Shown: piece by piece, positions 9,130 to 35,080 of the stretch
How positions within the stretch are numbered: the first letter of the stretch is position 1
How the letters are laid out: each line of letters opens with the position of its first letter
DNA from: Diplonema papillatum
Lineage: Eukaryota; Euglenozoa; Diplonemea; Diplonemida; Diplonemidae
Assembly: GCA_030068145.1 (NCBI GenBank)
Contig: JAPJBO010001104.1
Location: 1 to 64,000 of the forward strand
Length of the DNA stretch: 64,000 bases
Direction: 5' to 3'
Program-made: the position numbers and the translations under genes
The notes under the pieces: model-generated
The model's input: only the letters and a program-made list of their open reading frames with translations
The model's database searches: none
Told to the model about the DNA's origin: nothing

Positions 9130-9281
9130 GGTGTCACCTGGGGGGGTAATCTCAGGGCCGCCCACGTGATAAGCCGTTAAGCATTGAGTTCTTTTAAGTA
9201 CATGAACCACATGGATTGGTTGCCGTTAAGCAGTGTGAACTTGATTGTTAAGCAGCAGCTGCCGGCTTATCCCGTGACACC
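9130..9281 (-). ncRNA. Structured pseudoknot RNA element, copy B (long loop form)
   Basis: On the minus strand the ends GGTGTCA and TGACACC pair. Inside, CACGGGAUAAGCCG pairs with CGGCUUAUCACGUG (one internal G-A mismatch). The loop begins GCAGCUGCUGCUUAA, and its GCUGC can pair with GCGGC downstream of the stem (one G-U pair), forming a pseudoknot. A variable hairpin (CCUG...CAGG) precedes the closing strand. Compared with the copies at 12886-12964 and 17110-17188 the loop carries ~70 extra nt, shared in part with the copy at 34950-35080. The function is unknown. Confidence 0.6.
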
Positions 9282-9340
9282 TTTTATATGGTACGATGCC
9301 AAAACCCCCCCCCCCCCTTTGCACTAATAAATTTTTTTTT

Positions 9341-9493
9341 GATGTCACCCCATACTGGCCCCGAAACCCCACTTGTGTGGCCCAAAACGGTTCCCAAACG
9401 GTTTTTGGCGGGCTGAGTCGAGGTAAAGGGGTCTCTGAAGGCCCACGAATAGGCCCACACAGATGGGGTTCGGGGCCAGTATGGGGTGACATT
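9341..9493. mobile_element. ~150-bp hairpin (MITE-like foldback)
   Basis: The left arm starts GATGTCACCCCATACTGGCC and the right arm ends with its complement (GGCCAGTATGGGGTGACATT). The arms are about 45 bp and nearly perfect, extending through CCCCGAAACCCCA and GTGTGGCC. Short arms with no coding content fit a MITE or an inverted-insertion foldback, nested inside the composite element. Confidence 0.75.
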
Positions 9494-9497
9494 AAAA

Positions 9498-10850
9498 AGT
9501 ACGTGCGCTCGGCTAAGGCCGGCGCGTGGCGAGACTGGAGGCAGCAGTTAAAGTTCGGGGAACAGCAAAGTTCGGGCGAAGCTAAGTTCGGGCAATGCTA
9601 AGTTCTGGTGAAGCAAAGTTCGGGTGAAGCTAAGTTCGGGCGAAACAAAGTTCGGGCGAAGCAAAGTTCGGGCGAAGCTAAGTTCGGGCGAAGGTGAAGC
9701 TAAGTTCGGGCGAAACAAAGTCCGGGCGAAGCTAAGTTCTGGGTGAAGCAAAGTTCGGGCGAAGGTGAAGCTAAGTTCGGGCGAAACAAAGTCCGGGCGA
9801 AGCTAAGTTCTGGGTGAAGCAAAGTTCGGACGTTCTGGTGAAGCTAAGATCGGGCGAAACAAAGTTCGGCGAAGCTTAGTTCGGGTGAAGCAAAGTTCGG
9901 GCGAAGCTAAGGTCGGGTGAAGCAAAGTTCTGGTGAAGCTAAGTTCGGGCGAAACAAAGTTCGGGCGAAGCAAAGTTCTGGGCGAAGCTAAGTTCGGATG
10001 AAGCAAAGTTCTGGTGAAGCAAAGTTCGGGCGAAACAAAGTTCTGGGGAAGCAAAGTTCGGGCGAAGCAAAGTTCGGGCGAAGCTAAGTTCTGGTGAAGC
10101 AAAGTTCGGGCGAAGCAAAGTTCGGGTCAAGCTAAGTTCGGGCGAAACAAAGTTCGGGCGAAACAAAGTTCGGGCGAAGCAAAGTTCTGGGCGAAGCTAA
10201 GTTCGGATGAAGCAAAGTTCTGGTGAAGCAAAGTTCGGGCGAAACAAAGTTCTGGGGGAAGCAAAGTTCGGGCGAAGCAAAGTTCGGGCGAAGCTAAGTT
10301 CTGGTGAAGCAAAGTTCGGGCGAAGCAAAGTTCGGGTCAAGCTAAGTTCGGGCGAAACAAAGTTCGGGCGAAACAAAGTTCGGGCGAAGCAAAGTTCTGG
10401 GCGAAGCTAAGTTCGGATGAAGCAAAGTTCTGGTGAAGCAAAGTTCGGGCGAAACAAAGTTCTGGGGGAAGCAAAGTTCGGGCGAAGCTAAGTTCTGGTG
10501 AAGCAAAGTTCGGGCGAAGCAAAGTTCGGGTCAAGCTAAGTTCGGGCGAAACAAAGTGCGGGCGAAGCTAAGTTCTGGGGAAGCAAAGTTCGGATGAAGC
10601 AAAGTTCTGGTGAAGCAAAGTTCGGGCGAAACAAAGTTCTGGGGGAAGCAAAGTTCGGGCGAAGCAAAGGCTAAGTTCTGGTGAAGCAAAGTTCGGGCGA
10701 AGCAAAGTTCGGGTCAAGCAAAGTTCGGGTCAAGCTAAGTTCGGGCGAAACAAAGTCCGGGCGAAGCTAAGTTCTGGGGGAAGCAAAGTTCTGGTGAAGC
10801 AAAGTTCGGGCGAAGTTCGGGTGAAGCAAAGTTCTGGTGAACATTGCATG
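9498..10850 (+). repeat. TTCGGGCGAA minisatellite with leader
   Basis: After a 57-bp leader (TACGTGCGCTCGGCTAAGGC ... GGAGGCAGCAGTTAAAG), a ~15-17-bp unit, roughly GAAGCAAAGTTCGGGC, repeats about 80 times to 10850. Variants include TTCTGGTGAAGC and TTCTGGGGGAAG. A higher-order period of ~210 bp is visible: GTTCGGATGAAGC occurs near 9992, 10201 and 10411. The core TTCG-GG-CGAA is self-complementary around a 2-base centre. A short version (~180 bp) with the same leader is at 39722-39960. Long frames on either strand are periodicity artefacts. Confidence 0.9.
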
Positions 10851-10903
10851 TTCATAGGACCTCCAGTCTCGAAAAATTCTCAAAAACTTCAAACCGAAAA
10901 AAA

Positions 10904-10965
10904 CACTTCGCGCGGGGATCGAACCGCGGACCTGTCGGTCCGGAGACCGTCGCACTGTTGAAGTG
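10904..10965 (-). tRNA. tRNA-like segment (degenerate; SINE head or pseudogene)
   Basis: On the minus strand CACTTC pairs with GAAGTG as an acceptor-like stem. A B-box (GGTTCGATCCC) sits in a CGCGG/CCGCG T-arm, and the anticodon-like arm (ACGGTCTCCGGACCG) resembles tRNA-Arg(CCG) with one loop base missing. The D-arm is weak. It lies between the minisatellite and the tail shared with 40182-40240, so it is more likely the head of a repeat than a working tRNA. Confidence 0.45.
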
Positions 10966-11052
10966 GACCATAAGGCATGAAATCCGAAAAACGGAAAAAG
11001 CCAGCTCCGCGCTATTATCTAGTTCAAAAACAGTACATTTTTAAAAGTGGGG

Positions 11053-11107
11053 TTGGCTCGAATAGAGGCTATTCACATTGCATGTTCATAGACCTCCAGT
11101 CTCGAAA
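11053..11107 (+). repeat. Common tail of the tRNA-like composite repeat
   Basis: GGTTGGCTCGAATAGAGGCT, then ATTCACATTGCATGTTCATA, then CCTCCAGTCTCGAAA occurs here and at 40182-40240. Its last part also occurs at 10846-10876, just after the minisatellite. Confidence 0.7.
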
Positions 11108-11376
11108 TATTTTATTAGTGCAAAGGGGGGGGGGGGGGGTTTGGCATCGTCTCATATGTACATTATTGAAAGAGTAGCGTTGGCACTCTTACAGCGAATG
11201 CCTTGCCAGTAAGTCAGGCCCGATGAAGAAAACCCTTACGCAGCCTCTGCACCTATACCTTAAAGAACAGGTGCTTTGCTTTCCTCTTCAGGGGGGGGGC
11301 TCGTTGTATAATGGTCTAGCTCTTGTTTTTCAGAGTTATAGTTCGCTTGAGAAGATTTTTAGAGTTAAAGTTTACT

Positions 11377-11888
11377 GGGGGGGGGGGGGGGGGGGTCGAA
11401 TACAAGAGGTACCTCTTCTATTCGGCGTGCCGATCCTGCAATTTTCCCGAAAAAAGAAATGGAAAAAGTACCGCAAGCCCGGAAACCGCGGGAGCTCCCT
11501 TCTTCTTGAAAGACGCACGCAATATGTGGTCCCCGGGTCTATTTTTCACGGTTCTCTTCATCGGAGCTGAACGCGAGCACAAATTCGCCGAAAAAGGTCT
11601 GCTACACGGGCCAGCAAAGAAATGTCACCAACCAGTGGGTCGATTCCCTTTCTATTGAAACCCTGTGGGTTCCACGCCCGGTGCCCCGCATCTGGCAAAG
11701 ACCCATGAACCACGCACATAAATCTTGGTCCCCGGGTCTATTTTTCACGGTTCTCTTCATCGGAGCTCATCGCGATCAGAAAACCGTCGAAAAAGGTCTG
11801 TTATGCGGACCAAGGAAAAACCCAACCTTTTTCCAGATTTCCAAAATGCCTCTTGTATTCAAGGTACCTCCTGTATTCGACCCCCCCC
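11377..11888. mobile_element. Inverted-repeat element with G-run/C-run edges (TCGAATAC ends)
   Basis: The left end is a 19-base G-run followed by TCGAATACAAGAGGTACCT. The right end is AGGTACCTCCTGTATTCGA followed by eight C, an exact inversion apart from one base. Outside them AAAGTTTACTGG and CCAGTAAGTTAAACTTT continue the inversion. Inside is a ~105-bp direct duplication (11517-11613 and 11719-11812) beginning TGGTCCCCGGGTCTATTTTT. Both copies keep a frame reading WSPGLFFTVLFIGA, but no family is recognised. Confidence 0.7.
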
Positions 11889-12080
11889 AGTAAGTTAAAC
11901 TTTTCAGAGGTAAAGTTTTTTGTCAGGGTGTTCGTGTGCGCAGTTGTATGCTGTGAGAGCGTATGTAGACACCTGTCGATTAATACGTGTTTTCATCTCG
12001 TTCTTCAGTAGTTTCGGCCGTTTTGCACGGACTACGTATGCGTGATCGTCATTTGAAAGTGAAAAGGGAGAGGCAAAAAA

Positions 12081-12120
12081 GAGGAGTTCGGTTAGATTTC
12101 CAAATCTAACCGAACTCCTC
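12081..12120. repeat. Near-perfect 19-bp-arm palindrome
   Basis: GAGGAGTTCGGTTAGATTT and its exact complement are separated by only two bases. Cruciform or hairpin potential is very high. Neighbouring sequence is not inverted, so this is not simply the centre of a larger foldback. Confidence 0.85.
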
Positions 12121-12131
12121 TCCAAATTTCT

Positions 12132-12370
12132 TTTGGCCAGGGCCAGGCCAGGCTTACGCTCCGTTTCGGTCTCAGAGAAAATACCTGTTGACTAACGGTT
12201 AGGTCGGACCCTTCCCCGGTGAACATCCCATGAAAGTAACAGTGTTGACTTAGACCGATACGGGCTACATGGCAACCCCTGCTCAACATGTACGCACGTG
12301 GGTCGGCCCAGGGCCACATTCATTGCGAATGTGTTCGTGGTGTCGGTCGCAGGGAGTGAAAGAGTACGTA
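12132..12370 (-). repeat. Rep-H copy (minus)
   Basis: This is the inverse of 31265-31500. Shared blocks include CGACACCACGAACACATTCG, CCCACGTGCATACATGTTGA, GGGGTTGCCATGTAGCCC and GTCAACACTGTTACTTTCAT. A partial copy lies at 36525-36625. Confidence 0.7.
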
Positions 12371-12379
12371 CAGTAGTGC

Positions 12380-12830
12380 GTTGCTCTGCCTTATATGTGC
12401 CTATGACGCGTGCACTGCACTTTTCATTTGTATGGAAAGCACGTGGTGTACACACTCCGCAACCCCGCGCCTGATACTATTTGTGTTGGCGGTGAGGACA
12501 TAACGAATTATAGCCGGAAGAAACAAGTGAAGAATTTTGCAAGCGACGATCACTCTTGGCACTTCCATTTCATTTCCTCTTTCCACAAGGGCCCATATTT
12601 TTTGCACGCATTTTCCTTTCGCAAGCGATCACTTGAGAGAGAGAGAGAGAGACTCTCCGGGGGAGTTTCCGGTCTCCTCACTTGATGTTTCACAAATGCC
12701 CCTTGATGTGCAATTCTTTATTGAATTATTACACTTGCCGATTTCGCAAAGCGAGCGCTTGATTTTTCACACGTGCAGCGCAAATGGAAATGCATGGCGC
12801 GTGCGTGGTGCAAGAGAGAGAAAGAGATGC
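12380..12830. other. No gene recognised; short GA microsatellite
   Basis: A (GA)n run is at 12632-12651. CTCCGGGGGAGTTTCCGGTC near 12655 recurs near 21925. No coding frame is supported. Confidence 0.4.
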
Positions 12831-13098
12831 GTAGTTTTGTTTTATTCTTTTACTTGTTAGTTGTCGACAACTTGTTTTGTGTTGAGGTGTCATTCAGATG
12901 TAAATCTAAAGCCGCCCACGTCAAATTTTGTTAAGCAGCGGCTGCCAAAACTTGCCGTGACACCTATGATCAAAGTAAGTAGGAAAGGAGAAAGGTTGTT
13001 TAAAAAAAGAAATGGGGGTAGGTGATAGACCCTCGTAGCTCGCTGGGTCAGGCGCGCCAGGTAGGTGCTGGGCTAATTTCGGTCTGGGCTTGGGCGGG
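12831..13098 (-). repeat. Remnant 1 of a finger-encoding retroelement 3' end
   Basis: This segment aligns with 17051-17314. On the minus strand it begins with the last codons of a frame ending SPDRN-stop (stop near 13075). A strongly conserved ~46-bp block follows (CCCAGCACYTACCTGGCG, then CCTGACCCAGCGAGCTACG), then ~70 bp of diverged spacer, the structured RNA (12886-12964) and a conserved T/A-rich tail. The coding part upstream is lost here but present in the second remnant. Confidence 0.6.
12886..12964 (-). ncRNA. Structured pseudoknot RNA element, copy A (short form, 79 nt)
   Basis: Minus-strand reading: GGTGTCA...TGACACC closing stem. CACGGCAAGUUUUG pairs with CAAAAUUUGACGUG (one G-A mismatch, one G-U pair). 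The loop is GCAGCCGCUGCUUAA, and its AGCCGC can pair with GCGGCU just 3' of the stem. A small hairpin with AGAU/AUCU follows. On the plus strand the wobble would be an A-C mismatch, so the minus strand is the likely RNA. Confidence 0.65.
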
Positions 13099-13449
13099 GA
13101 GGGAGAAGCAAGCCGAACGTGCTGTATAATAGCCAACCTTCGCAATCCCCCGGGCTCCGAGAAATCGTCCATAGTGGCATAAGCACGGATCTCTACTACG
13201 CCGGTCCATCCCTATCTTCTGATACTGCCCACCCGTCCGGAAGTGTCCGGAGCTCGCGGCTACCGAAATCGTGCCATTTTTCCCTGAGGGGCGGCTACCC
13301 AGCGTCCAAGGCTATTTTGCAGATGGGTTGTGGAGTCATCTTGCGGTGCACTTGTGGGCCACTCTTTTTCTTGCTTCCTGTCTTCAGCATGCATCATCCG
13401 CGCTTGATCATTGACAACCTGCTTTTGCTTACCTGTGATTCCCGGGCTA
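13099..13449. other. No gene recognised
   Basis: Short overlapping frames only. No shared repeat was noticed. Confidence 0.35.
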
Positions 13450-13513
13450 CACGTTGATCTTTCGCGACTGGCAGTCTCCTCAAGTATTTCCTACAAAGCA
13501 GGTGCTTGCAGCT

Positions 13514-13545
<32 letters not shown>

Positions 13546-13735
13546 AGCAGGCCGAGTTCCAGGCCTCTCTTCAGGTTGTTCTTCTTCTTTTTCACCTGGT
13601 ATGTCTTGAGTTAGGAATCTCCATGTGAAGCACGGACATGTAAACTGTGACAGTGACATGATCTTCAGTTTGGTGTTGGTTCGCTCATTGCTCAGGCCTA
13701 CATTTTTGGAACACATTGCAATGTCTCGAAAATAC
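13450..13735 (-). repeat. Rep-D 3' fragment, poly-T, and Rep-K copy
   Basis: 13455-13505 repeats the end of Rep-D. A 29-base T-run follows, then ~185 bp (GAGCAGGCCGAGTTCCAGGC to CACATTGCAATGTCTCGAAA) that is nearly identical at 37748-37975. Read on the minus strand Rep-K ends in a poly(A) tract, as expected of a retroposed transcript. Confidence 0.65.
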
Positions 13736-14022
13736 TCGACGTAGGTGCTTCGACTGGAATGGAAGGGGGGAAATATAGAGGTAAGGGGCAAATACAATAC
13801 AAACACAATCTGATTTGTTCTTCGCTTACACCACCGTGTGTTGTTTTCTCACTCAGGATTTTTTGACCTGTTGTGTTTGTGTGATTTGTCGTGTAGGGGT
13901 AGACCCGCATGACCTCACGTCCGTTCAACACGTGGTTCGGTAGTTACAGCACTTGGGATCCCTTCTGTTCTTTGTCGGGCAGCATCGTCGAGCATTTCCT
14001 TTCAAGCTGGCGCTTATGTAAA
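13725..14022 (+). repeat. Rep-C copy
   Basis: A ~290-bp repeat running from ACTCGACGTAGGTGCTTCGA through GATTTGTTCTTCGCTTACAC and GACCCGCATGACCTCACGTC to CATCGTCGAGCATTTCC. Other copies: 20729-20960, 35262-35612, 35956-36243 (inverted), 38745-38978. Fragments: 39232-39290 and 53822-53915. Confidence 0.75.
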
Positions 14023-16215: not shown

Positions 16216-16219
16216 TGTA

Positions 16220-17050: not shown

Positions 17051-17314
17051 AGTGCGTAGTTTTGTTTTATTCTTTTACTTGTTTGTTGTCGACAACATAT
17101 TGTGGTTGAGGTGTCATTCAGATGAAGATCTAAAGCCGCCCACGTCAAATTTTGTTAAGCAGCGGCTGCCAAAACTTGCCGTGACACCTATTTGATGCAA
17201 GGTAAAGGAGAAAGTTGGAAGTAATTGGGAAGTTGATATTTTGTTGGGACCCTCGTAGCTCGCTGGGTCAGGCGCGCCAGGTAAGTGCTGGGCTAGTTCC
17301 TGTCTGGGCTCGGA
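17051..17314 (-). repeat. Remnant 2: conserved 3' block and RNA of a finger-encoding element
   Basis: On the minus strand, directly after the SPDRN-stop of the finger frame, come the same ~46-bp block as in remnant 1 (containing GACCCAGCGAGCTACGAGG, able to form a GACCC/GGGTC hairpin), a diverged spacer, the structured RNA (17110-17188) and the shared tail ending AACTACGCA. Confidence 0.65.
17110..17188 (-). ncRNA. Structured pseudoknot RNA element, copy C (short form)
   Basis: It differs from copy A only in the apical part of the variable hairpin (AGAUCUUCAUCU versus AGAUUUACAUCU), so the AGAU/AUCU pairing is kept. All other stems and the GCAGCCGCUGCUUAA loop are identical. Confidence 0.65.
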
Positions 17315-17631
17315 CTGTGAAGTCCTCTTGGGTTTCCGTCGCAAGTTCTCTCGTGTATGCTTACACCGAACCAGTTTGCGAATGGGTTTCCGGACCTTGT
17401 TGTCGCTATACCACAGAAGCGACACTTCGGCACGGTGGCTTGTGGGTCAGGAAGTTGTGTTTCTGGGATGTTCGCGGGAGGGCTTGCCTGCGAATCTTGC
17501 GTTTGTGACGGCGTCTGTCGTGGCAGCTCTGGTGTAGCAGAAGAAAAAGGCGCCAAGTTTTTCAGATTTTTTTTAACGGTTTTTGAGGGGTGCCTTAGAC
17601 ACGAAATAAACGTATGTAGAGGTTGCTGCAT
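17293..17631 (-). CDS. C-terminal part of a C2HC zinc-finger protein (probable retroelement remnant)
   Basis: The 112-residue frame has a Pro/Gln/Ser-rich middle and one finger of the form C-x2-C-x19-H-x3-C (Cys70, Cys73, His93, Cys97; KCRFCG ... SIHERTC). The same spacing and the HER[TL]C ending appear at the C-terminus of the deubiquitinase-like frame at 31798-32955, so both probably come from one element family. The final SPDRN-stop is conserved in remnant 1, and the stop is followed by a conserved 3' block and a structured RNA. Fingers of this type are common in Gag-like or ORF1 proteins of retrotransposons, where they bind nucleic acid; that role is inferred. The true start and any upstream domains are missing, so this is a truncated relic. 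Confidence 0.5.
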   Translation of the reverse strand: MQQPLHTFISCLRHPSKTVKKNLKNLAPFSSATPELPRQTPSQTQDSQASPPANIPETQLPDPQATVPKCRFCGIATTRSGNPFANWFGVSIHERTCDGNPRGLHSPSPDRN

Positions 17632-17639
17632 GACGAAGA

Positions 17640-19652: not shown

Positions 19653-19656
19653 TTTT

Positions 19657-24231: not shown

Positions 24232-26024
24232 CCTTGTTCGGGTACTTGTCGCCGAATTCAAAACTACACGTGGCTGGGACTGCCCCCGCTGGACAGCTTC
24301 TAGAAAAGGATCGGTGCCGCCCCGCGTTTTATCGAGTGGCGGTGAACGCGCTCATCACACGAGCGCTCTTCTTTGCCACATCGACATCATCGGTCGTCAT
24401 CACCGTCAGCTTCACAACGGCGAGCACACTCCTGTAACATCGTCGCAGTCTCGGGTGTCTCGTCCTCTCGCGCCCACTGCAACCGGAGTGGACGGAATGG
24501 GGCCCTCTTCGCAGCTTTCGGGGTCCCTTTAGAGCTGCTGGCCGCAGGTCAACAGAATCCAGGTGACACGGAATGCGTTTCGTCAAAACATCGGCTGAGG
24601 CTGACAATAGAGTCCGCACCTCGCCCGTTAATTACACAGAAAGTCTTCTGTGTCGCTGACGTCGCCGACGATCTGACCCAAAAACGTATTCTCAAGTCAG
24701 CAATGGTGTCGCATTCAAACATTTCTCGACCAATAATGGGTTCGGGTATAGTGACACAAACTATCAACGCCGCGGGATATTGTGATGCTGTACCCTCAGA
24801 ACCCCGCATTCTGAGGCTGAGTGGGGGGCCCTTATCTTCTTCTGAGCATAGAACCCGGTTTCGCCTCAGAGGTCGCACACCCCACATGCACAGCATCGTA
24901 CTTGCCAGAATATTTCTGCCCAAACCCCTCCCCCCTGGCATCGTCTCATATTCCTCTCTTTTTGTACAATCGGAGGTCCTGAAGTCCCACCTTTTTGCCT
25001 TGGGCCCGGGGAGAGGGGGAGCAAATACTGCGCAGGATACAAGCCACCCTGGGATGCTCCTCAAAACCCGGAGTAGTTCTGAGAGTTCCTGCAGGAAAGG
25101 TAAAAATAAAAAATGGACCCCACCCTGAGTTCTGCCGGGTTTCTGCCGGGTTCTTGCCGGGTTCTTGGCGACTTCTTACCGACTTTCTACCGGGGTCTGG
25201 ATCACACCATTTGTGTTGCTTTTTTTTCTTTTTTCCTGACGACAACTAGTGTCAGGGACTTATATGGGTCGGAGAGATTTGGCCGGAAAGTTGGGAGTGC
25301 AGTGGGTGAAACTTGGGCAGTTGAACTGTTGTTGTTTTGGCAGAAGTTTCCGACGCTTCTCGCACGTTGGACACTGCTGTGTCATGCTCGCCCAGCCAGG
25401 TGCCAACTCGGCAGTCAGAACGCGCTGCGGCAAGAAGATCGGGTAAAGGCGTTGGGGCAACAGGTTCTCTTTGTGTTCCAACTGAGAACGTTAGCCCCGA
25501 TCTAATTGTCGTCAGCACCTGCTCCGGTCAATACAAGACAAAAAGGTGTCGAGGTCTACGTAATCTAGACTTCTCTGTGATTGCTAAATCCTCGCACATA
25601 GCTCCTGCATGCGTCAATTGGTATGCGAATCCCTGGATGATAACATTATACATTATTATAGGCAAAATCGAAAGACGGAGTCTCAAGGGAATCTCCCTTG
25701 ATCGCTGGCCGCATCTTTCCTTACCAAACCTGTAAGCTCGTCAGTGGCAGCTTTGAGGCGAGCAATTGCAAACTCATGTTCTATATACGGCGTGGTATCG
25801 GGATTTGTACCTTTCGTGGCACACAAGTGTAGTGTAGTGGTCGAGCTACGCCTTTTTACCCCGTTCTTGTTAGCAAGCACGCAAGTGCGAGGTTTGCGGG
25901 CAGCAACGCGGCCAGTCCCCAACAATAAGCCCGAAAAAGAAAGTGGTTCCGGGGGGGTTTGTATTTTTTTTTTTTTTTTCTTCCGACAGCTTCAGGGGTT
26001 TTTCCACTCACCAGTTTCGGGCCA

Positions 26025-26465
26025 AACCCGTGGTGAAAAAAAATTTCACTCCGGCAGAAAAGTTTTTCTGCCGGTGTGGTGTGGTGTGGGTGCCAGTCGA
26101 CACGTGCCTGTGTCTGTCTGTGTGTGGTACGCGTCGTTGACCTCGTAGCCCCATAAGCGGGGGTCCCTCTGGCCCTTCACCCCACTCAAGTTTGGGGTGC
26201 TAGCTCCCCACCCACACTTTTCCACTCACAACCCGCGCCCTTACCACCCACAACCCACGCCCCGACCACACACAACACGCACCCACTCCACCACCAGCGC
26301 CCACCACCCACGCCCACCCACACTGTCCACCACAACCCGCGCCCTGACCACCTACACCCAGCAACGCAAAATCCCTTTAGTGAAAAAAGTTTTTTCACCA
26401 AGCCCATTTTGGGAATTTTTTTTTTTTAGTGAATTTTTTTTTTTTCACTAAAGGGGAAAATCCCT
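26025..26465. repeat. Palindrome-rich stretch with CCCACAACCCGCGCCC words
   Basis: It holds GGTGAAAAAAAATTTCACT, CCGGCAGAAAAG/TTTTTCTGCCGG, then repeats of ACCCGCGCCCT and CACCCACGCCC, and finally CCCTTTAGTGAAAAAA with its inverse TTTTTTCACTAAAGGG (26376-26457). The last pair looks like short inverted ends around 26370-26460. The same structure is in the right copy at 55790-56225, with changes in the C-rich words. Confidence 0.65.
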
Positions 26466-26975
26466 GGACAGCTTAGGTACCAGGGAGCCTGCTACACGGG
26501 AGCCAAGCTTCACGTGTTCGGCGGTACTGCAGAGCACGGGCCTGCGGGTCCAGTGCTACCGATTTTCCCAAACGAAAGCATCAAGGCTTGGCGCACCTTG
26601 GGGCTCTGGCGCTCGCGCTGAACACAAGCTCGTCGAGACGGTCAGCCGCAGACGGGGTTGTGCACTGTGCTGCCTCCGACTCAAGCTTTGCAAGCTGTGG
26701 TTGACCGCCATCGTTCCTGGACCGGGAGCGGCGTCGCCTTTTTCTTTTTTGTGTTCTTCTTCTTTTCCGACAGCTTTCTTATCGTGTATTCTTCCGTCTC
26801 GGTTGTCGGATTTAGACCGTCGTTCTACATCCTAACGTAAACTATCTCCCTCCGTTTCTTCTTTTTTTCGTCTGGTAGTTGTTTTTTTTCTCCTCCAGCG
26901 ATAATATTTTGTCCAGGCGGCGCGGGGATGGGACTTTTTGCGACCCTCTTCATCCCAGCCACACTTGGAGGTGGT

Positions 26976-27990
26976 TCATTTTTCGACTGTTTCTTTCGAG
27001 TGAAGGTCGCTTAATGATCCGGGGTTTTTTTGAGCTTGAGTTCGATGTTTTTCGGCGGCTCTTCCGTTTTTCGTGCATGTCACTTTCGAAGCCATCGTTG
27101 AGCGACCTGTCGCCTTACGGTGCCAGTCAAGCTAGCACACTTTCTTCCATTTTCGACTGTTTCTTTCGAGTGAAGGTGGCTTAAGGATCCGGGGGTTTTT
27201 TAGCTTGAGTTCGATGTTTTTCGGCGGCTCTTCCGTTTTTCGTACATGTCACTTTCGAAGCCATCGTTGAGCGACCTGTCGCCTTACGGTGCCAGTCAAG
27301 CTAGCACACTTTCTTCCATTTTTGACTGTTTCTTTCGAGTGAAGGTGGCTTAAGGATCCGGGGTTTTTTTGAGCTTGAGTTCGATGTTTTTCGGCGGCTC
27401 TTCCGTTTTTCGTGCATGTCACTTTCGAAGCCATCGTTGAGCGACCTGTCGCCTTACGGTGCCAGTCAAGCTAGCACACTTTCTTCCATTTTCGACTGTT
27501 TCTTTCGAGTGAAGGTGGCTTAAGGATCCGGGGGTTTTTTAGCTTGAGTTCGATGTTTTTCGGCGGCTCTTCCGTTTTTCGTACATGTCACTTTCGAAGC
27601 CATCGTTGAGCGACCTGTCGCCTTACGGTGCCAGTCAAGCTAGCACACTTTCTTCCATTTTTGACTGTTTCTTTCGAGTGAAGGTGGCTTAAGGATCCGG
27701 GGTTTTTTTGAGCTTGAGTTCGATGTTTTTCGGCGGCTCTTCCGTTTTTCGTGCATGTCACTTTCGAAGCCATCGTTGAGCGACCTGTCGCCTTACGGTG
27801 CCAGTCAAGCTAGCACACTTTCTTCCATTTTTGACTGTTTCTTTCGAGTGAAGGTGGCTTAAGGATCCGGGGGTTTTTTGAGCTTGAGTTCGATGTTTTT
27901 CGGCGGCTCTTCCGTTTTTCGTGCATGTCACTTTCGAAGCCATCGTTGAGCGACCTGTCGCCTTACGGTGCCAGTCAAGCTAGCACACTT
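26976..27990 (+). repeat. 6 x ~170-bp tandem array
   Basis: TTTCGACTGTTTCTTTCGAG recurs at about 26983, 27153, 27322, 27492, 27661 and 27831. Each unit contains GGATCCGGGG, GAGTTCGATGTTTTTCGGC and GAGCGACCTGTCGCCTTACG. Alternating variants (GTACATG/GTGCATG; TTTCGAC/TTTTGAC) suggest a two-unit higher-order repeat. The duplicate locus 56726-57240 has three units. Confidence 0.92.
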
Positions 27991-28954
27991 CTTCCACAGT
28001 TCACTTGAGCTTTCTTTTTTCTGTACTTTCTTTCTCCCTTGTCGGTCATTCTAGGTGATGAAATTTCTTCAGTGATCATTTGTCCAGACGGGGTGCGACT
28101 GCCAAACTTTCCACGTCCGTAACGTCTTTCTCGTCAACGGCAGCAAGTGTCCACCCAGAGGTGATTGATTTCCTTCGGCAGGGGGTTCTCCACCGGCGGA
28201 AGCTTGATTCTACGTTCTTCACTTTCTTTTTTCTCCAACGGCGGTACTGCAGAGTCACGGGCCTACGGGTCAAGTGGCTACCGATTTCCCAAACTAAAGC
28301 ATCAAGGCGTGGCGCACCTTGGGCTTGGCGCTTGCGCTGAACACAAGCTCGTCGAGACGGTCAGCCGCAGGGCAGAGCGGACGGGTTGTGGCACTGTGCT
28401 GCCTCCGACTCAAGCTTTGCAAGCTGTGGTTGACCGTCACGTTCCTGGACCAGGTGCGGCCTTTTTCTTCTTCTTCTTCAAACGGCGGCAACTGTCGGAC
28501 AAGGCCACGAAGGTGGCCGTTTCCTTGAACTTGAGTTCAAATTATTTTCTTTCTCCCAGCGGCGGTTAGTGCTTTTTTTTGTTACCGTCGATCCCGAGGG
28601 CCTGTTATTTTCTTGTGCTTCCGACGGTTTCTTTTTTTTTTTTTCCTGTCGACAACTTAAGTACCAGGGAAAGCCTGCTACACGGGAGCCAATCTTTACG
28701 TGTTCGGCGGTACTGCAGAGCCACGGGCCTACGGGTCAAGTGGCTACCGATTTCCCACACTAAAGCATCAAGGCGTGGCGCACCTTGGGGCTTGGCGCTC
28801 GCGCTCGTCGAGACGGTCAGCCGCAGGGCAGAGCGGACGGGGTTGTAGCACTGAGCTGCCTCCGACTCAAGCTTTGCAAACTGTGATGTTGACCGTCACG
28901 TTCCTGGACCAGGAGCGGCCTTTTTCTTTTTCTTTGCTTCTTCTTCTTCTTCTT

Positions 28955-29094
28955 CCTGTCGACAACTTGTGTCAGATTAGCCACCGGGGGGGTCGGTTCC
29001 TGCAGGCAGGGCCCCCGTCCAGAAACTGCTTGGGTGCAGACTTGCATGGCTTATTCCTTCCAAGCGTATGACTACTGACAGGATCAACCAGGTT
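28955..29094 (-). rRNA. SSU (18S) rRNA 5'-end fragment next to a Rep-B remnant
   Basis: On the minus strand 29094 to about 29035 reads AACCTGGTTGATCCTGTCAG, then TAGTCATACGCTT ... AAGCCATGCAAGTCTG. This is the very conserved 5' terminus of eukaryotic small-subunit rRNA, with substitutions and a short altered segment. Only ~60 nt match. It stops at sequence resembling Rep-B (28955-29034), so it is a stranded fragment or pseudogene, not a working gene. Confidence 0.75.
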
Positions 29095-30239: not shown

Positions 30240-30473
30240 CGTGTGTTTCGATCGTGATTGAGGGGTCGTTGTTATTGGTAGTGGTTTTGAGGGAAAAGGA
30301 CATGGGTAAGAAATCTTTTTGTGGTGGCCTCCGCTGGTCTGGTAGTCCGTGCTACCTTCATTCTTTTACACTCGTTCTCTTCTCGACTCACTACTGTACG
30401 TACTCTTTTACTCTTTTACTCTCTTTCTAGGCTAGACACCACGAACACATTCGCTCGTGTTTCGATCGTGATT
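30240..30473 (+). repeat. Rep-H copy carrying the empty insertion site, then the left part of a second copy
   Basis: 30244-30280 reads GTTTCGATCGTGATTGAGGGG followed by TCGTTGTTATTGGTAG, continuing to GTAGTCCGTGCTACC and TACTGTACGTACTC. A second copy starts at 30457 (TGTTTCGATCGTGATTG) and is interrupted by the element at 30488-31139, resuming at 31151 with TCGTTGTTGTTGGTG. The first copy thus preserves the uninterrupted target. Confidence 0.75.
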
Positions 30474-30487
30474 GGGGGGGGGGGGGG

Positions 30488-31139
30488 CAAGGGTACCTGT
30501 AAATCCAGGGTCTCCGGGGCCCGGGCCCCGGGCCCCGGGCCCCGGGCCCCGGGTTAGCGCTAGGGTCCAGATAGGGTCCAGGCCCACGGTAATCACGCCA
30601 TCCAAGGATGGAATCTTCAATATTGCAGCTTCCACAACAAGCGGAGAGCAAGACGAGAAAAAATCAAGAAATAAACTTGATAAAATTTGATGAAAAAACT
30701 CACAGTCGTGCATTTACCATATGGGCTGAGCGGGCGGAGGCTCCAAGGTGAAATGGTCAAAATGCCCTGGAAAAAATGTGGGCAAAAACTTTCCGAATTG
30801 CGGAGTTTTAGGGATTCCGGCCCAAAAAAAAATTTTTTTTTTCAACGCCCACCTTGCCACCTGTGACCTTGGGTGAGCCGTGGTACCCTTTAGGCAGCCA
30901 GCTAGACCTGCCAGAACCTGAAAACCTCCTTCAGGTTTCGTGGCTGTGTCGAAAAATACATTCTGAGGACGTTTTTGAACGCTTTTGAATCCGTTGAGCT
31001 CAAGGACAGTCTGGGGCCCTGGAATGGAATTGTAAACGAATTGCATCTCGTACCAGAGAGTTTTTCCTTTGGTAATTGTCCAGGGCCAAAAACCCTGGAA
31101 ATTTTTCCAGGGCCCGGGCCCCGGATTACAGGTACCCCT
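30488..31139. mobile_element. 652-bp inverted-repeat element inserted in a G-tract
   Basis: The ends are inverted: AGGGTACCTGTAAATCC on the left and the complement of AGGGGTACCTGTAATCC on the right, followed on both sides by GGGGCCCGGGCCC. It is flanked by 14 G on the left (30474-30487) and 11 G on the right (31140-31150). Comparison with 30244-30280 shows a target with only four G (GATTGAGGGGTCG). Inside, 30748-30855 is related in inverted orientation to 43855-43975 (AAGGTGAAATGGTCAAAAT). No transposase frame. Confidence 0.8.
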
Positions 31140-31150
31140 GGGGGGGGGGG

Positions 31151-31500
31151 TCGTTGTTGTTGGTGATGGTTTTGTGGGATGAAGTAGGGGAAAGAAAATT
31201 TCTTTTTGCGGTGGTCTCCGCTGGCCTGGTAGTACGTGCTACCTCCTTTCTTTTACACTCGTTCTCTTCTCTACTCACTACTGTACGTACTCTTTCGCTC
31301 TTTTTCTCTCTTTGGCTAGCCAAAACAAAAGACTTCTGCGACCGACACCACGAACACATTCGCAATGAATGTGGCCCTGGGCCCCCCACGTGCATACATG
31401 TTGAGCAGGGGTTGCCATGTAGCCCGTATCGGTCTAAGTCAACACTGTTACTTTCATGGGATGTTCACCGGGGAAGGGTCCGACCTAACCGTTAGTCAAC
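31151..31500 (+). repeat. Rep-H copy (right part, continues to full length)
   Basis: It continues the interrupted copy through CTGTACGTACTCTTTCGCTC, CGACACCACGAACACATTCG, CCCCCACGTGCATACATGTT and GACCTAACCGTTAGTCAACA. 31501-31797 beyond it holds nothing recognised. Confidence 0.7.
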
Positions 31501-31797
31501 AGCAACGTCGAAAAGGGGGAGGGGGAAAGAAGATAGAAAATCGGTGGGGTTGACAAGCTCGTAAGTGGTTGTTTGTAGATCAGTACAACCTTAAACTACG
31601 CCTAGCACACGGCCAGGCGGTCTTTAACGAACCTCCAGTACATTAAACGCAAGTCGGCAGGTCGTCATCAGACGCGGCACGAAAAGCAAACGTCGCCGAC
31701 GCAGCACTTCAGCAATGCGTCCTCTTATTTACAGTGGGCACCGTACCTGAACTCAGCCCCGCTAGGCCGAGATTCCGGCTGTTCCGCAGGGCATACA

Positions 31798-32955
31798 TCA
31801 CTCCCCGAAGTTGACGTACGTGCAGAGACGTTCGTGCACATGCAGGCCTCTGAGGCCCCGGAACAATCGACCGTCCTTGGTGCGGTCGGTGAAGCAGCGC
31901 TTGCAGCGCAGTTCCGGGGGGTCCTTGGGCTGTTCAGGTGGCTGGTCGTGTGCTGCCAAAGCGGCGTCGGAGGGCATGGGTTGGCAAGATTCCAGATTCG
32001 CGTCGGTACAGGGCGGACTAGAAGGTATCAGCGGGACCTGCGGTGGGACTGTTGTTGCCATCATAGTAGGTGATGGCAAGCGTTCGACCACCTCGTGGGA
32101 CGCATTGGGGATTCGTACGTATGCGGCGAGGTATATGTCAGTCCAAGGAACGTTGTCGACGTGCAAGACTCGTTCGTCATCGAAAAGCGTCCATTGCATC
32201 CCTTGCAAGACGTATGTGACAAAATGGCCGCTTGTCGTATTTTGTCCCGTGTGTACAACCACCGCGGAAAGGCGTAGTGTGCCGTCCGGCAGTCGCAGGA
32301 GGAGCGGTAGGGAAGCGTCATTCCGTAGTCTCGCACCATCGCTTGCGTAAATGCCGAACTGCAACAGCAGGCACTCGGACGCCACATGCACGTTCATGGT
32401 CTCCACAACGGATCCAGCAGCTCCGCAGTCACACCTCCTCTCCGGATTCATAATTCCACGAACACAGAATGCGTCCTCCACCGGCCTTCCACGAGGGACT
32501 TGAAGACACCGTACCAGTTGATGACGGGTGGATGTGGCGCCACAGGCGATACATCGTGTTGTTGTCGTCATCGTGTTTTCCAGGCACGTCTGGAAAAGCC
32601 GCCAATCCGGACAAGCCTCCGTCGTCTCGTCCGGCCCTAGGGAGCTGTCTGTCCTATCCAGAATTGCAACCAGGGGATAATAGTTGATCGTCCGGAAATT
32701 GCGGTTTACGCCCTCAGAAATCCGAAAAAGCTCGTCAATGGGCTCCAAAACGCAATCCTTAAAAAGCGTGCCCGTTTGGTGCCACCGTTCGTCATGGAGA
32801 CCCCCTCGTAGTGCACTACGTCCCTCAAAATGCAAAAGAGAGGCACTTTGAAACGCCCATAGGAGGGAACAGGAAGAAGAACGGGGCCCGGTTGGCGCGG
32901 TTACTGTTGGGTGCCCCGTGCCAGTTCTCCAACGTTGGCACGAAGGGAGCAGCAT
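31798..32955 (-). CDS. USP-type deubiquitinase fragment fused to a C2HC finger
   Basis: Residues ~55-282 of this 385-residue frame resemble the C-terminal half of ubiquitin-specific proteases (peptidase family C19). A zinc-binding fingers-like pair (CIAC at 135-138, CDC at 175-177) is followed by LRLSAVVVHTG, then the histidine box SGHFVTYV (His244), then WTLFDDERV (Asp259/260) and AAYVRIP. The N-terminal cysteine box that would supply the nucleophile is absent, so it is incomplete or part of a spliced gene. The C-terminus (residues 351-378) is a C-x2-C-x19-H-x3-C finger ending HERLC, with the same spacing as the finger at 17293-17631. That links it to a retroelement family; a USP domain in such a protein could counter ubiquitin-dependent turnover, which is inference. 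Codons upstream of about residue 45 may not be genuine. Confidence 0.6.
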   Translation of the reverse strand: MLLPSCQRWRTGTGHPTVTAPTGPRSSSCSLLWAFQSASLLHFEGRSALRGGLHDERWHQTGTLFKDCVLEPIDELFRISEGVNRNFRTINYYPLVAILDRTDSSLGPDETTEACPDWRLFQTCLENTMTTTTRCIACGATSTRHQLVRCLQVPRGRPVEDAFCVRGIMNPERRCDCGAAGSVVETMNVHVASECLLLQFGIYASDGARLRNDASLPLLLRLPDGTLRLSAVVVHTGQNTTSGHFVTYVLQGMQWTLFDDERVLHVDNVPWTDIYLAAYVRIPNASHEVVERLPSPTMMATTVPPQVPLIPSSPPCTDANLESCQPMPSDAALAAHDQPPEQPKDPPELRCKRCFTDRTKDGRLFRGLRGLHVHERLCTYVNFGE

Positions 32956-34140
32956 TTAAATGCTGCTGCGAACGACGTCTTGGTCATTCCCGACTCTAAC
33001 GCCCTTCCCAGCTCCAGGCCCAACATCGATCCCAGTTTCCTCGACGCGGAAACGCACCGGTGTTGTGTGTGGCTACCATCTGCCATGATCTCTTCGTCGG
33101 CGTTGAGCCTCCTGAAGGGGTTTGTCGAAAAGAAAGGAAAGAAGAGCCGTGAACTACCCTCTCAGTAAGAAAACCTTCCTGAGGCCCCCGCCAACGCCTT
33201 GCGCAGATTGGCAGATTCAGGACTTGTCTGCCGCGATGGCTTCCAAGATCGCTGCATGGATTCGCGCGGCGGAAAGCCTAGACACACAGGCAGGCGCGTT
33301 GCTGTGTACGTGCGCAAAGCTCACGCCCAGACGTTTGATCGCTTCTACGACCCCCAGCTAGTGTAGTCACTAGTCCGAATAAACGGGGCATCTTACAACC
33401 ACTTCGGCAACCAACGACTTCGCAGAAGGATGCCACGGGACACTATCATCTCTGAGCAGCCGTCTGCGGCTTAGCAAATCCTATCGGATTGCATCGCTTA
33501 CTCAGCCTGCACACAACTCTGATAGCGCTCGGAAGCTTTTCGACGACACCTTCACGACTGACGAAGACCTTGATGAGCAGGAGTTTCCAAGACTCCCTCT
33601 GACCGATCAGTGCACCAAGAGCGCTATATGTGTCTCTGGTTGAGCCACGGAAGCTGCTTCGTCCGACCCCCGTCGCGCCAGCAGACGAGCTCCAGCTCCC
33701 TCATCAGGGCATCCCAGTTGAAGATCGCCGGGGAATTATGGTTGCAGCCGTCCAAGCGCACGGCTTTCCATTTCGCCCCCGGCAAAGAGAGCATGCCAGG
33801 AGTAACCGTGCGCACACGTCTGTTAGCTATCTTGTGTGACCCTGGTGACCCAAAATACGCGTGGTGTGCTCCCGTGCCCCCTCCAAGATTGCGTATGTCT
33901 TCCCACGTGACAAACGGTGGCACCAAACGGGCACGTTTTTTACTTGTGCTCGAGCACAGCTTTTAAGCCCTGCGGAGACCATCCAGGTCTTTATTTCGTG
34001 TTTTTTCGGGGTTTGCCCTGGGGTATGTAGTCATGGGCTCGTGTACGCGCGTTTTTCGCCTTACAAAAAAAATACCCCAATGGGACACATTTTTTGCCTT
34101 AGTTTGACCCCCCCTAGGCATAGTGGTCAAACGATTCGCA
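32956..34140. other. Unassigned coding-like debris with an inverted copy of part of the USP frame
   Basis: 33905-33942 (CAAACGGTGGCACCAAACGG ...) is the inverse of 32757-32793, so RWHQTGT.F is encoded on both strands. Plus-strand 33487-33640 reads an acidic peptide (SARKLFDDTFTTDEDLDEQE ...) and 33276-33363 reads RRVAVYVRKAHAQTFDRFYD-PQLV-stop. Minus-strand 33624-33926 reads KWKAVRLDGCNHNSPAIFNW. None was identified. They may be exons or decayed pieces of the same element. Confidence 0.4.
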
Positions 34141-34497
34141 TTATCGCATATTATCGCATTTGGGATTTTGGCGCCAATGCAATGGCAGCCACTTGGTTCC
34201 AAATGCGTGCCACCAGATCTCCACGAGCCACTTGTTTGCTGCTTTCAAAGCTAGTCCCTCTGGTACGGTGAGGCAGTCAGAGTGCTCAGCCAATGCACAG
34301 AGCTGGTCGTGTCGTCCGGAAAGAAGCGAGGACCTTCGCAATCCCTCTGTCGCGTTGGTGTAGATCTCCGTATTCCACTGCGGGCTGAGAGCGGCGGCGG
34401 CTTCGTGGAGGGGACGCCGGTAATAAATCCTCCACAGCAGAAGTCCGACTAGGGGTCCCACAGAAACAAAGCCTTTTCCTTTGCGGTTTGTCGACAT
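34141..34497 (-). CDS. Hypothetical protein fragment (118 residues)
   Basis: The frame has balanced composition with a helix-like central part (GRHDQLCALAEHSDCLTVPE, GLALKAANKWLVEIWW). It ends where the short word TTATCGCATA repeats (34141-34160). No family is recognised, there is no signal peptide, and the start is uncertain. It could be a decayed exon. Confidence 0.3.
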   Translation of the reverse strand: MSTNRKGKGFVSVGPLVGLLLWRIYYRRPLHEAAAALSPQWNTEIYTNATEGLRRSSLLSGRHDQLCALAEHSDCLTVPEGLALKAANKWLVEIWWHAFGTKWLPLHWRQNPKCDNMR

Positions 34498-34587
34498 CCC
34501 ACTGTCACTGCTGCCACTTACGACAGCATAAATGTCACTTGCCCACGTCTATATCGATCGCATATGTCTATCCATTGCTAGCCTTGC

Positions 34588-34706
34588 ACTGGACCGTTGC
34601 CGTTTGCAAACGTTTGCAAACGGCATCTGCCAGATCTGCAAACGCAAACGCAAACGTTTGCGCCAACGTTTGCACGTTTGCAGCCAGCACTGCCCTAGGG
34701 GGGAAA
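34588..34706. mobile_element. CAAACGTTTGC word array with one TAGGGCAGTG end
   Basis: Words GTTTGCAAACGTTTGC, GCAAACGCAAACG and CGTTTGCACGTTTGC fill 34598-34692. The right edge (CAGCACTGCCCTA then six G) is the inverse of the TAGGGCAGTG end of the element at 43257-43715, which has the same words. The left end could not be found, so it is truncated. Confidence 0.6.
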
Positions 34707-34829
34707 ATCTTAGTTTCGTGTTCGGGCGCTACTTGCCTCTAAGTGTTTGATGCTAGCATCAAGTCTTCTTCGCGGAATAGGGGGGGGATGAAAACTAACG
34801 GAGCAGAGCTGTCGCAGTGATTCTTTGAA

Positions 34830-34949
34830 GCAAGAAATGTGAAAACGGGTTTTTGCCTAGAGGCTTTTCGTGTTATTCTGCAGATGCTTTGGGCTATCTT
34901 TGTGTCTTTGCTTTCAGTTGTCTTCTTAACCATGGTTAAGTGCGCAAAT
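34830..34949 (+). repeat. Rep-M copy
   Basis: GAAATGTGAAAACGGGTTTT, TTCTGCAGATGCTTTGGG, CATGGTTAAGTGCGCAAATG. A copy is at 59150-59280. Confidence 0.65.
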
Positions 34950-35080
34950 GGTGTCAGCCGAAGCTGGTAAAGCTTCGGCGCCGCCCACGTTATGTTTGTT
35001 TAGCATTGAGTTCTTTTAAGTACATGAACCACATGGATTAGCATGCACTTGTTTAGCAGCGGCTGCCAAACATCCCGTTG
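34950..35080 (-). ncRNA. Structured pseudoknot RNA element, copy D (long loop form)
   Basis: Minus strand: AACGGGAUGUUUG pairs with CAAACAUAACGU. The loop starts GCAGCCGCUGCUAAA and GCCGC can pair with GCGGC. The variable hairpin is a perfect 8-bp GCCGAAGC/GCUUCGGC, and the 3' closing strand TGACACC is intact. The 5' closing strand is replaced by UUUUUUCAACGGG, which can instead pair with CCCGUUGAAAAG upstream. The ~50-nt loop insert can form AAGUGCAUG/CAUGUACUU and shares its sequence with copy B. Confidence 0.6.

What the first reader, a model, noticed from the sequence alone, without database searches (positions are those of the whole stretch)
9130..35080. Four copies of a pseudoknotted RNA element with compensating stem changes
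Seen: copies at 9130-9281, 12886-12964, 17110-17188 and 34950-35080 (all minus) share GCAGCYGCUGCUUAA (or UAAA) and CGUGGGCGGC. The main stem changes sequence but keeps pairing: CACGGCAAGUUUUG/CAAAAUUUGACGUG, CACGGGAUAAGCCG/CGGCUUAUCACGUG, AACGGGAUGUUUG/CAAACAUAACGU. A second hairpin also covaries (AGAU/AUCU, CCUG/CAGG, GCCGAAGC/GCUUCGGC). G-U pairs appear only if the minus strand is the RNA. The conserved loop can pair with GCGGC to make a pseudoknot. Inference: a selected RNA structure, perhaps a self-cleaving or processing element carried by a retroelement. I could not match it to hammerhead, twister, HDV, pistol or hatchet layouts.
Basis: partly seen in the sequence, partly recalled or inferred. 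Interest (0 to 1): 0.88.

Follow-up and report, generated by a model that had tools for sequence, protein, structure and literature searches.

The report
Pseudoknot RNA shared by diplonemid retroelements
A small knotted RNA shape, kept by matching changes on both sides of its stems, sits near the 3' end of several related jumping genes in the marine protist Diplonema papillatum, where it probably marks the RNA for copying, and another jumping gene inserts itself precisely into its loop.

Summary
The window (Diplonema papillatum) has at least seven copies, not four; an exact core pattern occurs 3,462 times in the genome (reversed control 1). Seven families (A-G) share one architecture: P1, P2 with a G.A mismatch, UNAA bulge, 5-nt loop paired with a 3' strand (pseudoknot), P3. 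P1, P2 and the pseudoknot covary. Pseudoknot pair 4 is G..C in 768 exact copies and C..G in 1,009; the mismatched combinations number 0 and 3.

The element lies downstream of the ORF in retroelements whose reverse transcriptase I read as Penelope-like (inferred), some with a deubiquitinase domain. In five families a second covarying hairpin (1,008 exact copies) lies upstream.

The two long copies carry an insertion: another retroelement (AlkB-like oxygenase, 2A-like peptide, AP endonuclease, RT) sits in the loop. Of 2,930 exact copies of its 3' end, 2,368 abut TGCTNAAC; 12 of 20 junctions examined show a target duplication of 9 nt or more.

Best explanation (inferred): a template-recognition signal for reverse transcription, working like the avian R2 3'-UTR pseudoknot. 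Self-cleavage is not excluded, but nothing found supports it and no Rfam family matched. Function was not tested.

The parts
12886..12964 (-). family A pseudoknot element, uninterrupted: P1 GGUGUCA/UGACACC, P2, loop GCCGC, 3' strand GCGGC, P3
   Evidence: 40 scored genome matches identical over 86 bp, this copy included
17110..17188 (-). family A pseudoknot element, uninterrupted
9130..9281 (-). family B pseudoknot element interrupted by an insertion in the loop (about 9184-9246)
9184..9246 (-). insertion between two TGCTTAAC copies that ends in the 3' end of the site-specific LINE 'X' (a further TGCTTAAC lies inside it)
34950..35080 (-). family C pseudoknot element (outer 5' strand lost), interrupted in the loop
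   Evidence: an uninterrupted family C copy exists elsewhere (L099)
35006..35048 (-). 5'-truncated 3' end of LINE X in the loop, 10-nt target duplication TGCTAAACAA
31340..31434 (-). family D2 pseudoknot element, loop ACCCC, 3' strand GGGGC (not in the finding)
36525..36619 (-). family D2 variant pseudoknot element (not in the finding)
12253..12348 (+). family D2 pseudoknot element on the plus strand; 3' strand damaged (GGGTCGGC)
13028..13049 (-). conserved upstream hairpin H1, stem GACCC/GGGUC, loop AGCGAGCUACGA
17248..17269 (-). conserved upstream hairpin H1
17293..17631 (-). 3' part of a family A retroelement ORF with C-x2-C...H...C zinc-finger-like motif, upstream of H1 and pseudoknot
   Evidence: sequence, motif by eye; same motif in L069
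31798..32955 (-). ORF with ubiquitin C-terminal hydrolase domain and C-terminal zinc-finger-like motif, upstream of the 31.4 kb pseudoknot copy

Best explanation
The element is a conserved cis-acting RNA structure, downstream of the ORF, in a group of retroelements of Diplonema papillatum whose reverse transcriptases look Penelope-like. The transcript folds into P1, P2 with a G.A mismatch and UNAA bulge, a 5-nt loop that pairs with the strand just 3' of P2 (pseudoknot), and P3. I think the element's own reverse transcriptase recognises this pseudoknot, probably together with the upstream hairpin H1, to pick its own RNA and begin reverse transcription nearby at a nicked TTCTT-like target. Shown here: the structure, its covariation, its place near the 3' end of inserted copies of families A, B, C and F, the linkage of families A and E to an RT ORF, and target duplications in some insertions. 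Inferred: the Penelope-like assignment, protein binding and the role in initiation. A separate LINE ('X', AP-endonuclease type) uses the conserved loop DNA as its insertion site; the sequence junctions show this, the biochemistry is inferred.
For: Structure: native P2 strands pair best with their own partner in 7 of 7 representatives tested (A, B, C, E3, F, D1, D3; mean -10.1 against -2.8 kcal/mol swapped; E1, D2 and G were not in that set). P1 natives average -9.8 against -4.4. Covariation score 0 of 500 shuffles. Pseudoknot pair 4 is G..C in 768 copies, C..G in 1,009, mismatched 0 and 3; pair 1 is G-C, A-U (G) or G.U (F) where it forms. Families E and F are similar in their flanks but differ by the double change in pair 4, so that compensation probably arose more than once. 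Location: 33 distinct family A 3' flanks become unrelated about 58 nt after P1, and 25 of 33 then read NTTCTT (counted by eye). Target duplications: 14 nt in family F (L094, by eye); 18 nt, 11 nt and two longer ones in family A. Carriers: family A RT ORF in L069 and family E RT-UCH ORF in L066 lie upstream of the motif. Precedent: avian/turtle R2 3' UTRs use a pseudoknot-hinge-stem that the R2 protein binds to start target-primed reverse transcription; breaking it lowers and compensating restores activity (passages of PMC12180492 and PMC12222951).
Against: No binding, cleavage or transcript data. The motif's distance to the 3' end differs (by eye): about 58 nt in A, less in B, over 100 nt in C, and in D1 shared sequence runs about 150 nt further. 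The one Penelope-like element studied in vitro (PAc, passages of PMC11167929) needs RNA in the first 172 nt of its ORF and initiates internally there, not in a 3' UTR. The Penelope-like assignment is weak: RVT_1 matches are below cutoff in three of five annotated proteins (E 0.022, 0.11, 0.094) and absent at E 1 in two, absent at 0.01 in the family A frame; NCBIfam gives weak group II RT matches; the rest is RT motifs that I recall. RT-bearing copies were read for A and E only; D2 has a UCH ORF upstream, B a zinc-finger-like ORF end, and for C, F and G no ORF was linked. Within the swap tests, E1, C and D2 pair better with a related family's strand than with their own. Pseudoknot pair 1 is unpaired (A.C) in 4 of 10 rows.
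Confidence: 0.55

Rival explanations
1. A new class of self-cleaving ribozyme, the counterpart in these elements of the hammerhead ribozymes found in Penelope-like elements, processing transcripts of tandem copies.
For: Small size, invariant loop and junction nucleotides, pseudoknot; Penelope-like elements are known to carry hammerheads (PMC11167929 passages). Some family F copies lie 721-726 bp apart and some family G copies 624 bp apart (coordinates), as tandem-processed RNAs might; L069 has a 96-nt, 86% alike partial repeat of its 3' tail just downstream.
Against: No Rfam match; motif not found 5' of the ORF in the two ORF-bearing loci; distance to the insertion end differs between families, so cutting at the motif does not set the end. 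The two F copies in L097 have different 5' ends and look like separate truncated insertions (by eye).
Confidence: 0.2
2. A 3'-region stability or export element (exonuclease-resistant or end-protecting pseudoknot) that keeps the transcript intact, not read by the RT.
For: Position downstream of the ORF, pseudoknot directly 3' of a hairpin.
Against: Nothing found points to it specifically; no Rfam family of any kind matched the element.
Confidence: 0.15
3. A DNA-level feature: a MITE-like transposon whose inverted repeats are GGTGTCA/TGACACC, or a single-strand DNA recombination site.
For: P1 looks like a terminal inverted repeat; A.C juxtapositions exist beside G.U ones, so pairing alone does not fix the strand.
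Against: Insertion boundaries lie outside P1 at distances that differ by family; 5' ends are ragged, as after truncated reverse transcription; the pseudoknot pairs covary.
Confidence: 0.03

Closest known systems
3'-UTR pseudoknot of A-clade R2 retrotransposons (zebra finch R2Tg, turtle R2)
   Same: Pseudoknot followed by a stem near the 3' end of a non-LTR-type retroelement RNA; pairing matters by compensation; A-rich stretches 3' of it (seen by eye in families A and E)
   Different: Sequences were not compared; closing stem P1, UNAA bulge and G.A mismatch are extra here as far as I saw; in family A it sits about 58 nt from the end; the carriers have a different RT type, some with a deubiquitinase domain
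Hammerhead ribozyme of Penelope-like elements
   Same: Conserved small RNA motif in retroelements of (probably) the same broad class
   Different: No hammerhead match in Rfam; downstream of the ORF rather than at the pLTR/ORF start; pseudoknotted; cleavage unknown
HDV-like ribozyme of trypanosomatid L1Tc/ingi elements (Pr77; start of the abstract of PMC4035085, rest recalled)
   Same: Pseudoknotted RNA in retroelements of euglenozoans
   Different: The HDV order of strands is not met (my reading, order recalled); downstream of the ORF; no Rfam hit
Site-specific LINEs that target other repeats, such as Tx1L, R1/R2, SLACS/CZAR (recalled; Tx1L only seen as a counted term in the listing)
   Same: Element X inserts at one defined sequence with a target duplication
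   Different: The target is the loop of an RNA structure shared by several retroelement families; X carries an AlkB-like oxygenase domain and a 2A-like peptide. Orchid Ty3/Gypsy elements with an m6A demethylase domain are in print (title and abstract start of PMC9289625)

Membership tests
Penelope-like elements (carriers) | Penelope/telomerase-type reverse transcriptase | tested here: inconclusive
   RVT_1 below cutoff (E 0.022, 0.11, 0.094) in three of five annotated proteins, none at E 1 in P0017 and P0013, none at 0.01 in P0020; weak group II RT matches in NCBIfam; motifs YGxPKLHK, NASPDxANLY, R(F/Y)xDDFLTW judged Penelope-like from memory; no tree or structure could be made (structure server busy in 14 tries)
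Penelope-like elements (carriers) | GIY-YIG endonuclease (absent in telomeric types) | tested here: not met
   No GIY-YIG Pfam match in P0011, P0012, P0016, P0017, P0013 or in P0020; UCH domain instead in the first four
Penelope-like elements (carriers) | Tandem copies giving pseudo-LTRs with a hammerhead | tested here: not met
   No repeat of the 3' region upstream of the ORF in L069 or L066 (L069 has a partial repeat downstream); no hammerhead match by Rfam in the window. Some F and G copies lie close together but no pLTR-ORF-pLTR array was seen
R2-type 3'-UTR recognition pseudoknot | Pseudoknot near the element's 3' end with compensatory changes | tested here: met
R2-type 3'-UTR recognition pseudoknot | Bound by the element's RT and needed for initiation | not testable with these tools
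   needs protein and RNA
Known self-cleaving ribozymes (hammerhead, HDV-like, twister, twister-sister, pistol, hatchet) | Score above the Rfam threshold | tested here: not met
   that each of these classes is in Rfam is recalled
Target-site-specific LINE (element X) | Fixed 3' junction at one target sequence | tested here: met
   2,368 of 2,930 exact 3' ends followed by TGCTNAAC
Target-site-specific LINE (element X) | Target-site duplication | tested here: met
   12 of 20 junction rows with a 5' target half within 1,500 nt have a duplication of 9 nt or more, 2 have 4-6 nt, 6 have 0-1 nt; two of the 12 rows are from one locus (L030); 17 further junctions had no 5' half in reach
Target-site-specific LINE (element X) | AP endonuclease and RT | tested here: met
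   Exo_endo_phos 1e-10, RVT_1 1.5e-19, 2OG-FeII_Oxy_2 5.4e-13 in one 1,738-aa frame

The most novel reading that the evidence does not exclude
A new RNA class serves as the shared replication signal of a whole group of diplonemid Penelope-like retroelements, and a second retrotransposon has evolved to home into exactly the loop of that signal, so that it parasitises the conserved replication signal of other retrotransposons in five families (A-E). A bolder form, also not excluded, is that the class is catalytic (a new ribozyme).
Probability: 0.45. Interest if true: 0.85.

Novelty: new variant of a known kind. Interest (0 to 1): 0.75.

Why it matters
How Penelope-like elements choose their RNA and start copying it is little known; PMC11167929 (abstract) describes the first one active in vitro. 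A compact, strongly covarying RNA with thousands of natural copies, tied to identifiable RT proteins, makes this directly testable. It would also be an RNA family that matched nothing in Rfam 15 here, a case of a mobile element targeting the conserved signal of other mobile elements, and a likely account of part of the repeat content of an abundant marine protist. The listings of searches showed no report of this RNA; one paper holds the words Penelope-like and diplonemid once each and was not opened, and most subscription papers are not in that library.

Tried and rejected
Rejected: chance; a MITE or inverted-repeat transposon (boundaries lie outside P1); known Rfam RNAs; a 28S-headed SINE for the 36.6 kb copy (of the 40 scored matches only the window itself spans both the 28S piece and the element); coding conservation of H1 (by eye, its conserved frame differs from the ORF frame and lies after the stop in A and B).

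A profile search of the PDB with the RT-UCH alignment listed only ubiquitin/Ubl hydrolases among the 60 of 78 matches shown. Protein searches gave no hit named Penelope. The alignment had wrongly set coordinates and was not used; the script matched nothing through a wrong pattern and was repeated.

Weak points: families were picked by pattern, so divergent ones are missed; F came from the H1 pattern and G. Copies within a family are related, so thousands of copies are not thousands of independent events. The covariance model includes window copies or sequences identical to them, which match by construction. The upper six P2 pairs only were counted, because the lower part does not align in register; with the lower pairs P2 pairs in 77.5% of cells.
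Full report
WHAT IS THERE. The window belongs to a 271-Mb eukaryotic assembly. A protein read from it at 47498-50698 is 100% identical, over 61% of the part searched, to DIPPA_13405 of Diplonema papillatum. A relaxed search shows three more in the window, with another loop (ACCCC instead of GCCGC) and, in two of them, the matching change in the 3' strand (GGGGC instead of GCGGC); the third (plus strand) is damaged there. A covariance model built from 12 natural cores, some of them window copies, finds the five uninterrupted copies at E 1.8e-16 to 5.8e-12, and the two interrupted ones only in pieces at E 0.00087 to 0.81.

HOW MANY. The exact pattern TGCTNAACN{5,35}ACGTGGGNGGC has 1,673 forward and 1,789 reverse matches in the genome; its reversed control has 0 and 1. 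This is a lower bound for the class, since it requires exact core letters, and it counts copies, not independent events.

ARCHITECTURE. In RNA sense: P1, 5-8 bp (GGUGUCA/UGACACC in A, B, C; GACCGRUA/UGUCGGUC in D; GGUGCCA or GGUGCUA with GGCACC in E; shorter in F). Then CGG ... ACG, with a conserved G opposite A (one mismatched pair in A, B, D2, E3; two in C, D1, D3; E1 and F have further unpaired bases), P2 of 7-9 bp, a 3' UNAA bulge, an invariant 3-bp GCA/UGC, a 5-nt loop, then UGG and a 5-nt strand that pairs with the loop, and a P3 hairpin that differs between families (AGAU...AUCU in A, CCUGAG...CUCAGG in B, a 9-bp hairpin in C, GUC-UUCG-GAC in G). I count seven families, A-G, with D in three subtypes. 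Sequences; duplex structures: (F and G by eye).

COVARIATION. With RNA duplex energies, the 5' strand of P2 pairs best with its own 3' strand in 7 of 7 representatives (A, B, C, E3, F, D1, D3; mean -10.1 against -2.8 kcal/mol for swapped partners). In the earlier set of eight the means were -9.0 and -3.1, but E1 (-3.5) paired better with the strands of E3 (-7.2), D2 (-5.7) and D3 (-5.4), C slightly better with E1, and D2 better with D3. P1 gave -9.8 against -4.4. Counted on ten natural representatives, 90.7% of cells pair, 24 cells show a change on both sides (shuffled mean 8.9) and the covariation score is 0.419 (shuffled 0.142; 0 of 500). The number of pairs with a double change (7) and of pair types (13) is reached by 65 and 114 of 500 shuffles, so those two measures do not discriminate. 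on 12 rows agrees (score 0.383, 0 of 500; the same two measures reached by 243 and 316). Genome-wide, pseudoknot pair 4 is G..C in 768 exact copies, C..G in 1,009, G..G in 0 and C..C in 3. Pair 1 is G-C, A-U (G) or G.U (F), and unpaired A.C in D and E3. E and F share flanking sequence (alignment) yet differ by the double change at pair 4, while D has it too; it therefore probably arose more than once.

WHERE IT SITS. In 28 loci of family A the sequence downstream stays alike for about 58 nt after P1 and then turns unrelated, apart from copies that share their surroundings and L018, which departs earlier. Among 33 distinct flanks, 25 continue NTTCTT (counted by eye). The upstream end is ragged. 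Target duplications are visible in some copies: 14 nt in F (L094, by eye); 18 nt (L020), 11 nt (L014, in a microsatellite) and two long ones (L016, L013) in A. Two more of the 33 had 9-nt repeats that may be chance, and 27 of 33 had no repeat of 9 nt or more within the fetched sequence. So the motif lies near the 3' end of elements that look inserted by reverse transcription. The distance to the end differs (by eye): shorter in B, over 100 nt in C, and in D1 shared sequence runs about 150 nt further.

WHO CARRIES IT. Upstream of the family A motif in L069 lie a 577-aa RT frame and a frame ending in C-x2-C...H...C. Upstream of family E in L066 lies the end of an RT frame fused to a ubiquitin C-terminal hydrolase domain (UCH 4.4e-16), 98% identical to the 870-aa DIPPA_16664. 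The window's own D2 copy at 31.4 kb follows an ORF with a UCH domain (1.4e-7) and the same kind of zinc-finger-like end. A family B copy (L040) also follows such an end (by eye). Six of 90 loci, and the window, match these proteins by tblastn at 1e-6; many loci are short or hold 5'-truncated copies. The RT matches RVT_1 only weakly or not at all. I call it Penelope-like from its motif set, from memory; a tree was not possible. It has no GIY-YIG match. In L069 and L066 the motif and its surroundings are not repeated upstream of the ORF.

SECOND ELEMENT. Families A, B, C, E and F share a hairpin with loop RGCGAGCUACGA. In the A, B, C and E loci it lies 70-136 nt upstream of the pseudoknot loop. 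Its stem changes too: GACCC/GGGUC, GUUCCC/GGGAAC, GCCC/GGGC, CACCC/GGGUG, ACCC/GGGU. The pattern has 1,008 matches and 0 in the reversed control. Swapping strands gives -7.2 native against -4.6 kcal/mol. This is less clear-cut than P2: F pairs better with the A strand than with its own, and C pairs as well with A's strand. Family F was found through this hairpin alone and proved to have the pseudoknot element, an independent check. I did not see the hairpin in D or G.

THE INSERTED LINE. In 29 of 69 distinct motif 3' halves in the loci and window (not a random sample), the sequence just before TGCTNAAC is the 3' end of another repeat. Its exact end TACTTAAAAGAACTCAA occurs 2,930 times, 2,368 of them directly before TGCTNAAC. 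Of 20 junction rows with a target 5' half within 1,500 nt, 12 show a duplication of 9 nt or more, 2 of 4-6 nt and 6 of 0-1 nt; for 17 more junctions no 5' half was in reach. Longer copies carry an open frame with a 2OG-Fe(II) oxygenase domain (PF13532; AlkB-like, recalled), a 2A-like DVEQNPGP (recalled motif), an AP-type endonuclease and RVT_1.

MECHANISM. The best precedent is A-clade R2. Its protein binds a pseudoknot in the 3' UTR to start target-primed reverse transcription, and breaking and compensating the pseudoknot lowers and restores insertion (passages of PMC12180492 and PMC12222951). The anole Penelope-like element PAc instead needs RNA at the start of its ORF, initiates internally, and its hammerhead activity is not needed in vitro (abstract and passages of PMC11167929). 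I therefore propose a recognition signal downstream of the ORF, at 0.55. A new ribozyme stays possible (0.2), as does a stability element (0.15).

LITERATURE. The Diplonema genome paper (abstract and 12 of 21 places found in PMC10161547) reports 52% repeats, about 2,500 retroelement gene models and about 3,600 scattered 28S pieces; in the passages shown it names retrovirus-related polyproteins, LINE-1, SLACS, R2, jockey and several DNA transposons, and no Penelope-like element or such RNA. Supplements were not open to me. Searches (listings only, apart from the papers named) showed no report of this RNA.

Noticed in passing
window 31798-32955 (-); L066 470-2017 (-); P0011, P0012, P0016, P0017: Proteins with RT motifs fused to a C-terminal ubiquitin carboxyl-terminal hydrolase (deubiquitinase) domain, also in two proteins without a source name (P0016, P0017); the window ORF shows the UCH part only.
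   Followed up: partly
L060 2065-7278 (+); L059 904-3126 (+): LINE X encodes an AlkB-like 2OG-Fe(II) oxygenase domain followed by a 2A-like peptide, AP endonuclease and RT; an unusual domain set. Some X copies seem to lie head to tail (L060, L061).
   Followed up: partly
window 6259-6450 (-) and 36906-36985 (-): Fragments of 28S rRNA (model 2621-2802 and 24-103), in line with the thousands of scattered 28S pieces reported for Diplonema; the second lies just upstream of a family D copy, an arrangement not seen in the other 39 scored matches.
   Followed up: partly
L098; contig C15 about 173670-174918: Family G motif in copies 624 bp apart, with a UUCG-capped P3 and an A-U pseudoknot pair 1; host element unknown.
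   Followed up: partly
L069 about 8035-8130: A 96-nt, 86% alike partial repeat of the family A 3' tail just downstream of the element.
   Followed up: no
window 59346-62901 (-): Overlapping long ORFs, one with a phage-integrase (tyrosine recombinase) domain and one with RT-like motifs by eye: perhaps a DIRS/TATE-like element.
   Followed up: no
window 47498-50698 (-): 1,066-aa ORF of another LINE (RVT_1 2.7e-15), matching DIPPA_13405.
   Followed up: no
window about 24373-29000 and 54135-58200 (+): ORFs with identical or nearly identical translations about 29.8 kb apart, pointing to a long direct duplication inside the window.
   Followed up: no
window about 9535-10600: Degenerate tandem array of a 16-bp unit (AAGTTCGGGCGAAGCA-like), beside motif copy 1.
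   Followed up: no
families A, C, E, F downstream of P1: Further palindromes in the tail by eye (GTTGTCGACAAC in A and E; CTTAACCATGGTTAAG in C; TACCATGGTA in E; GGAATACCGGTATTCC in F), possibly another changing hairpin.
   Followed up: no
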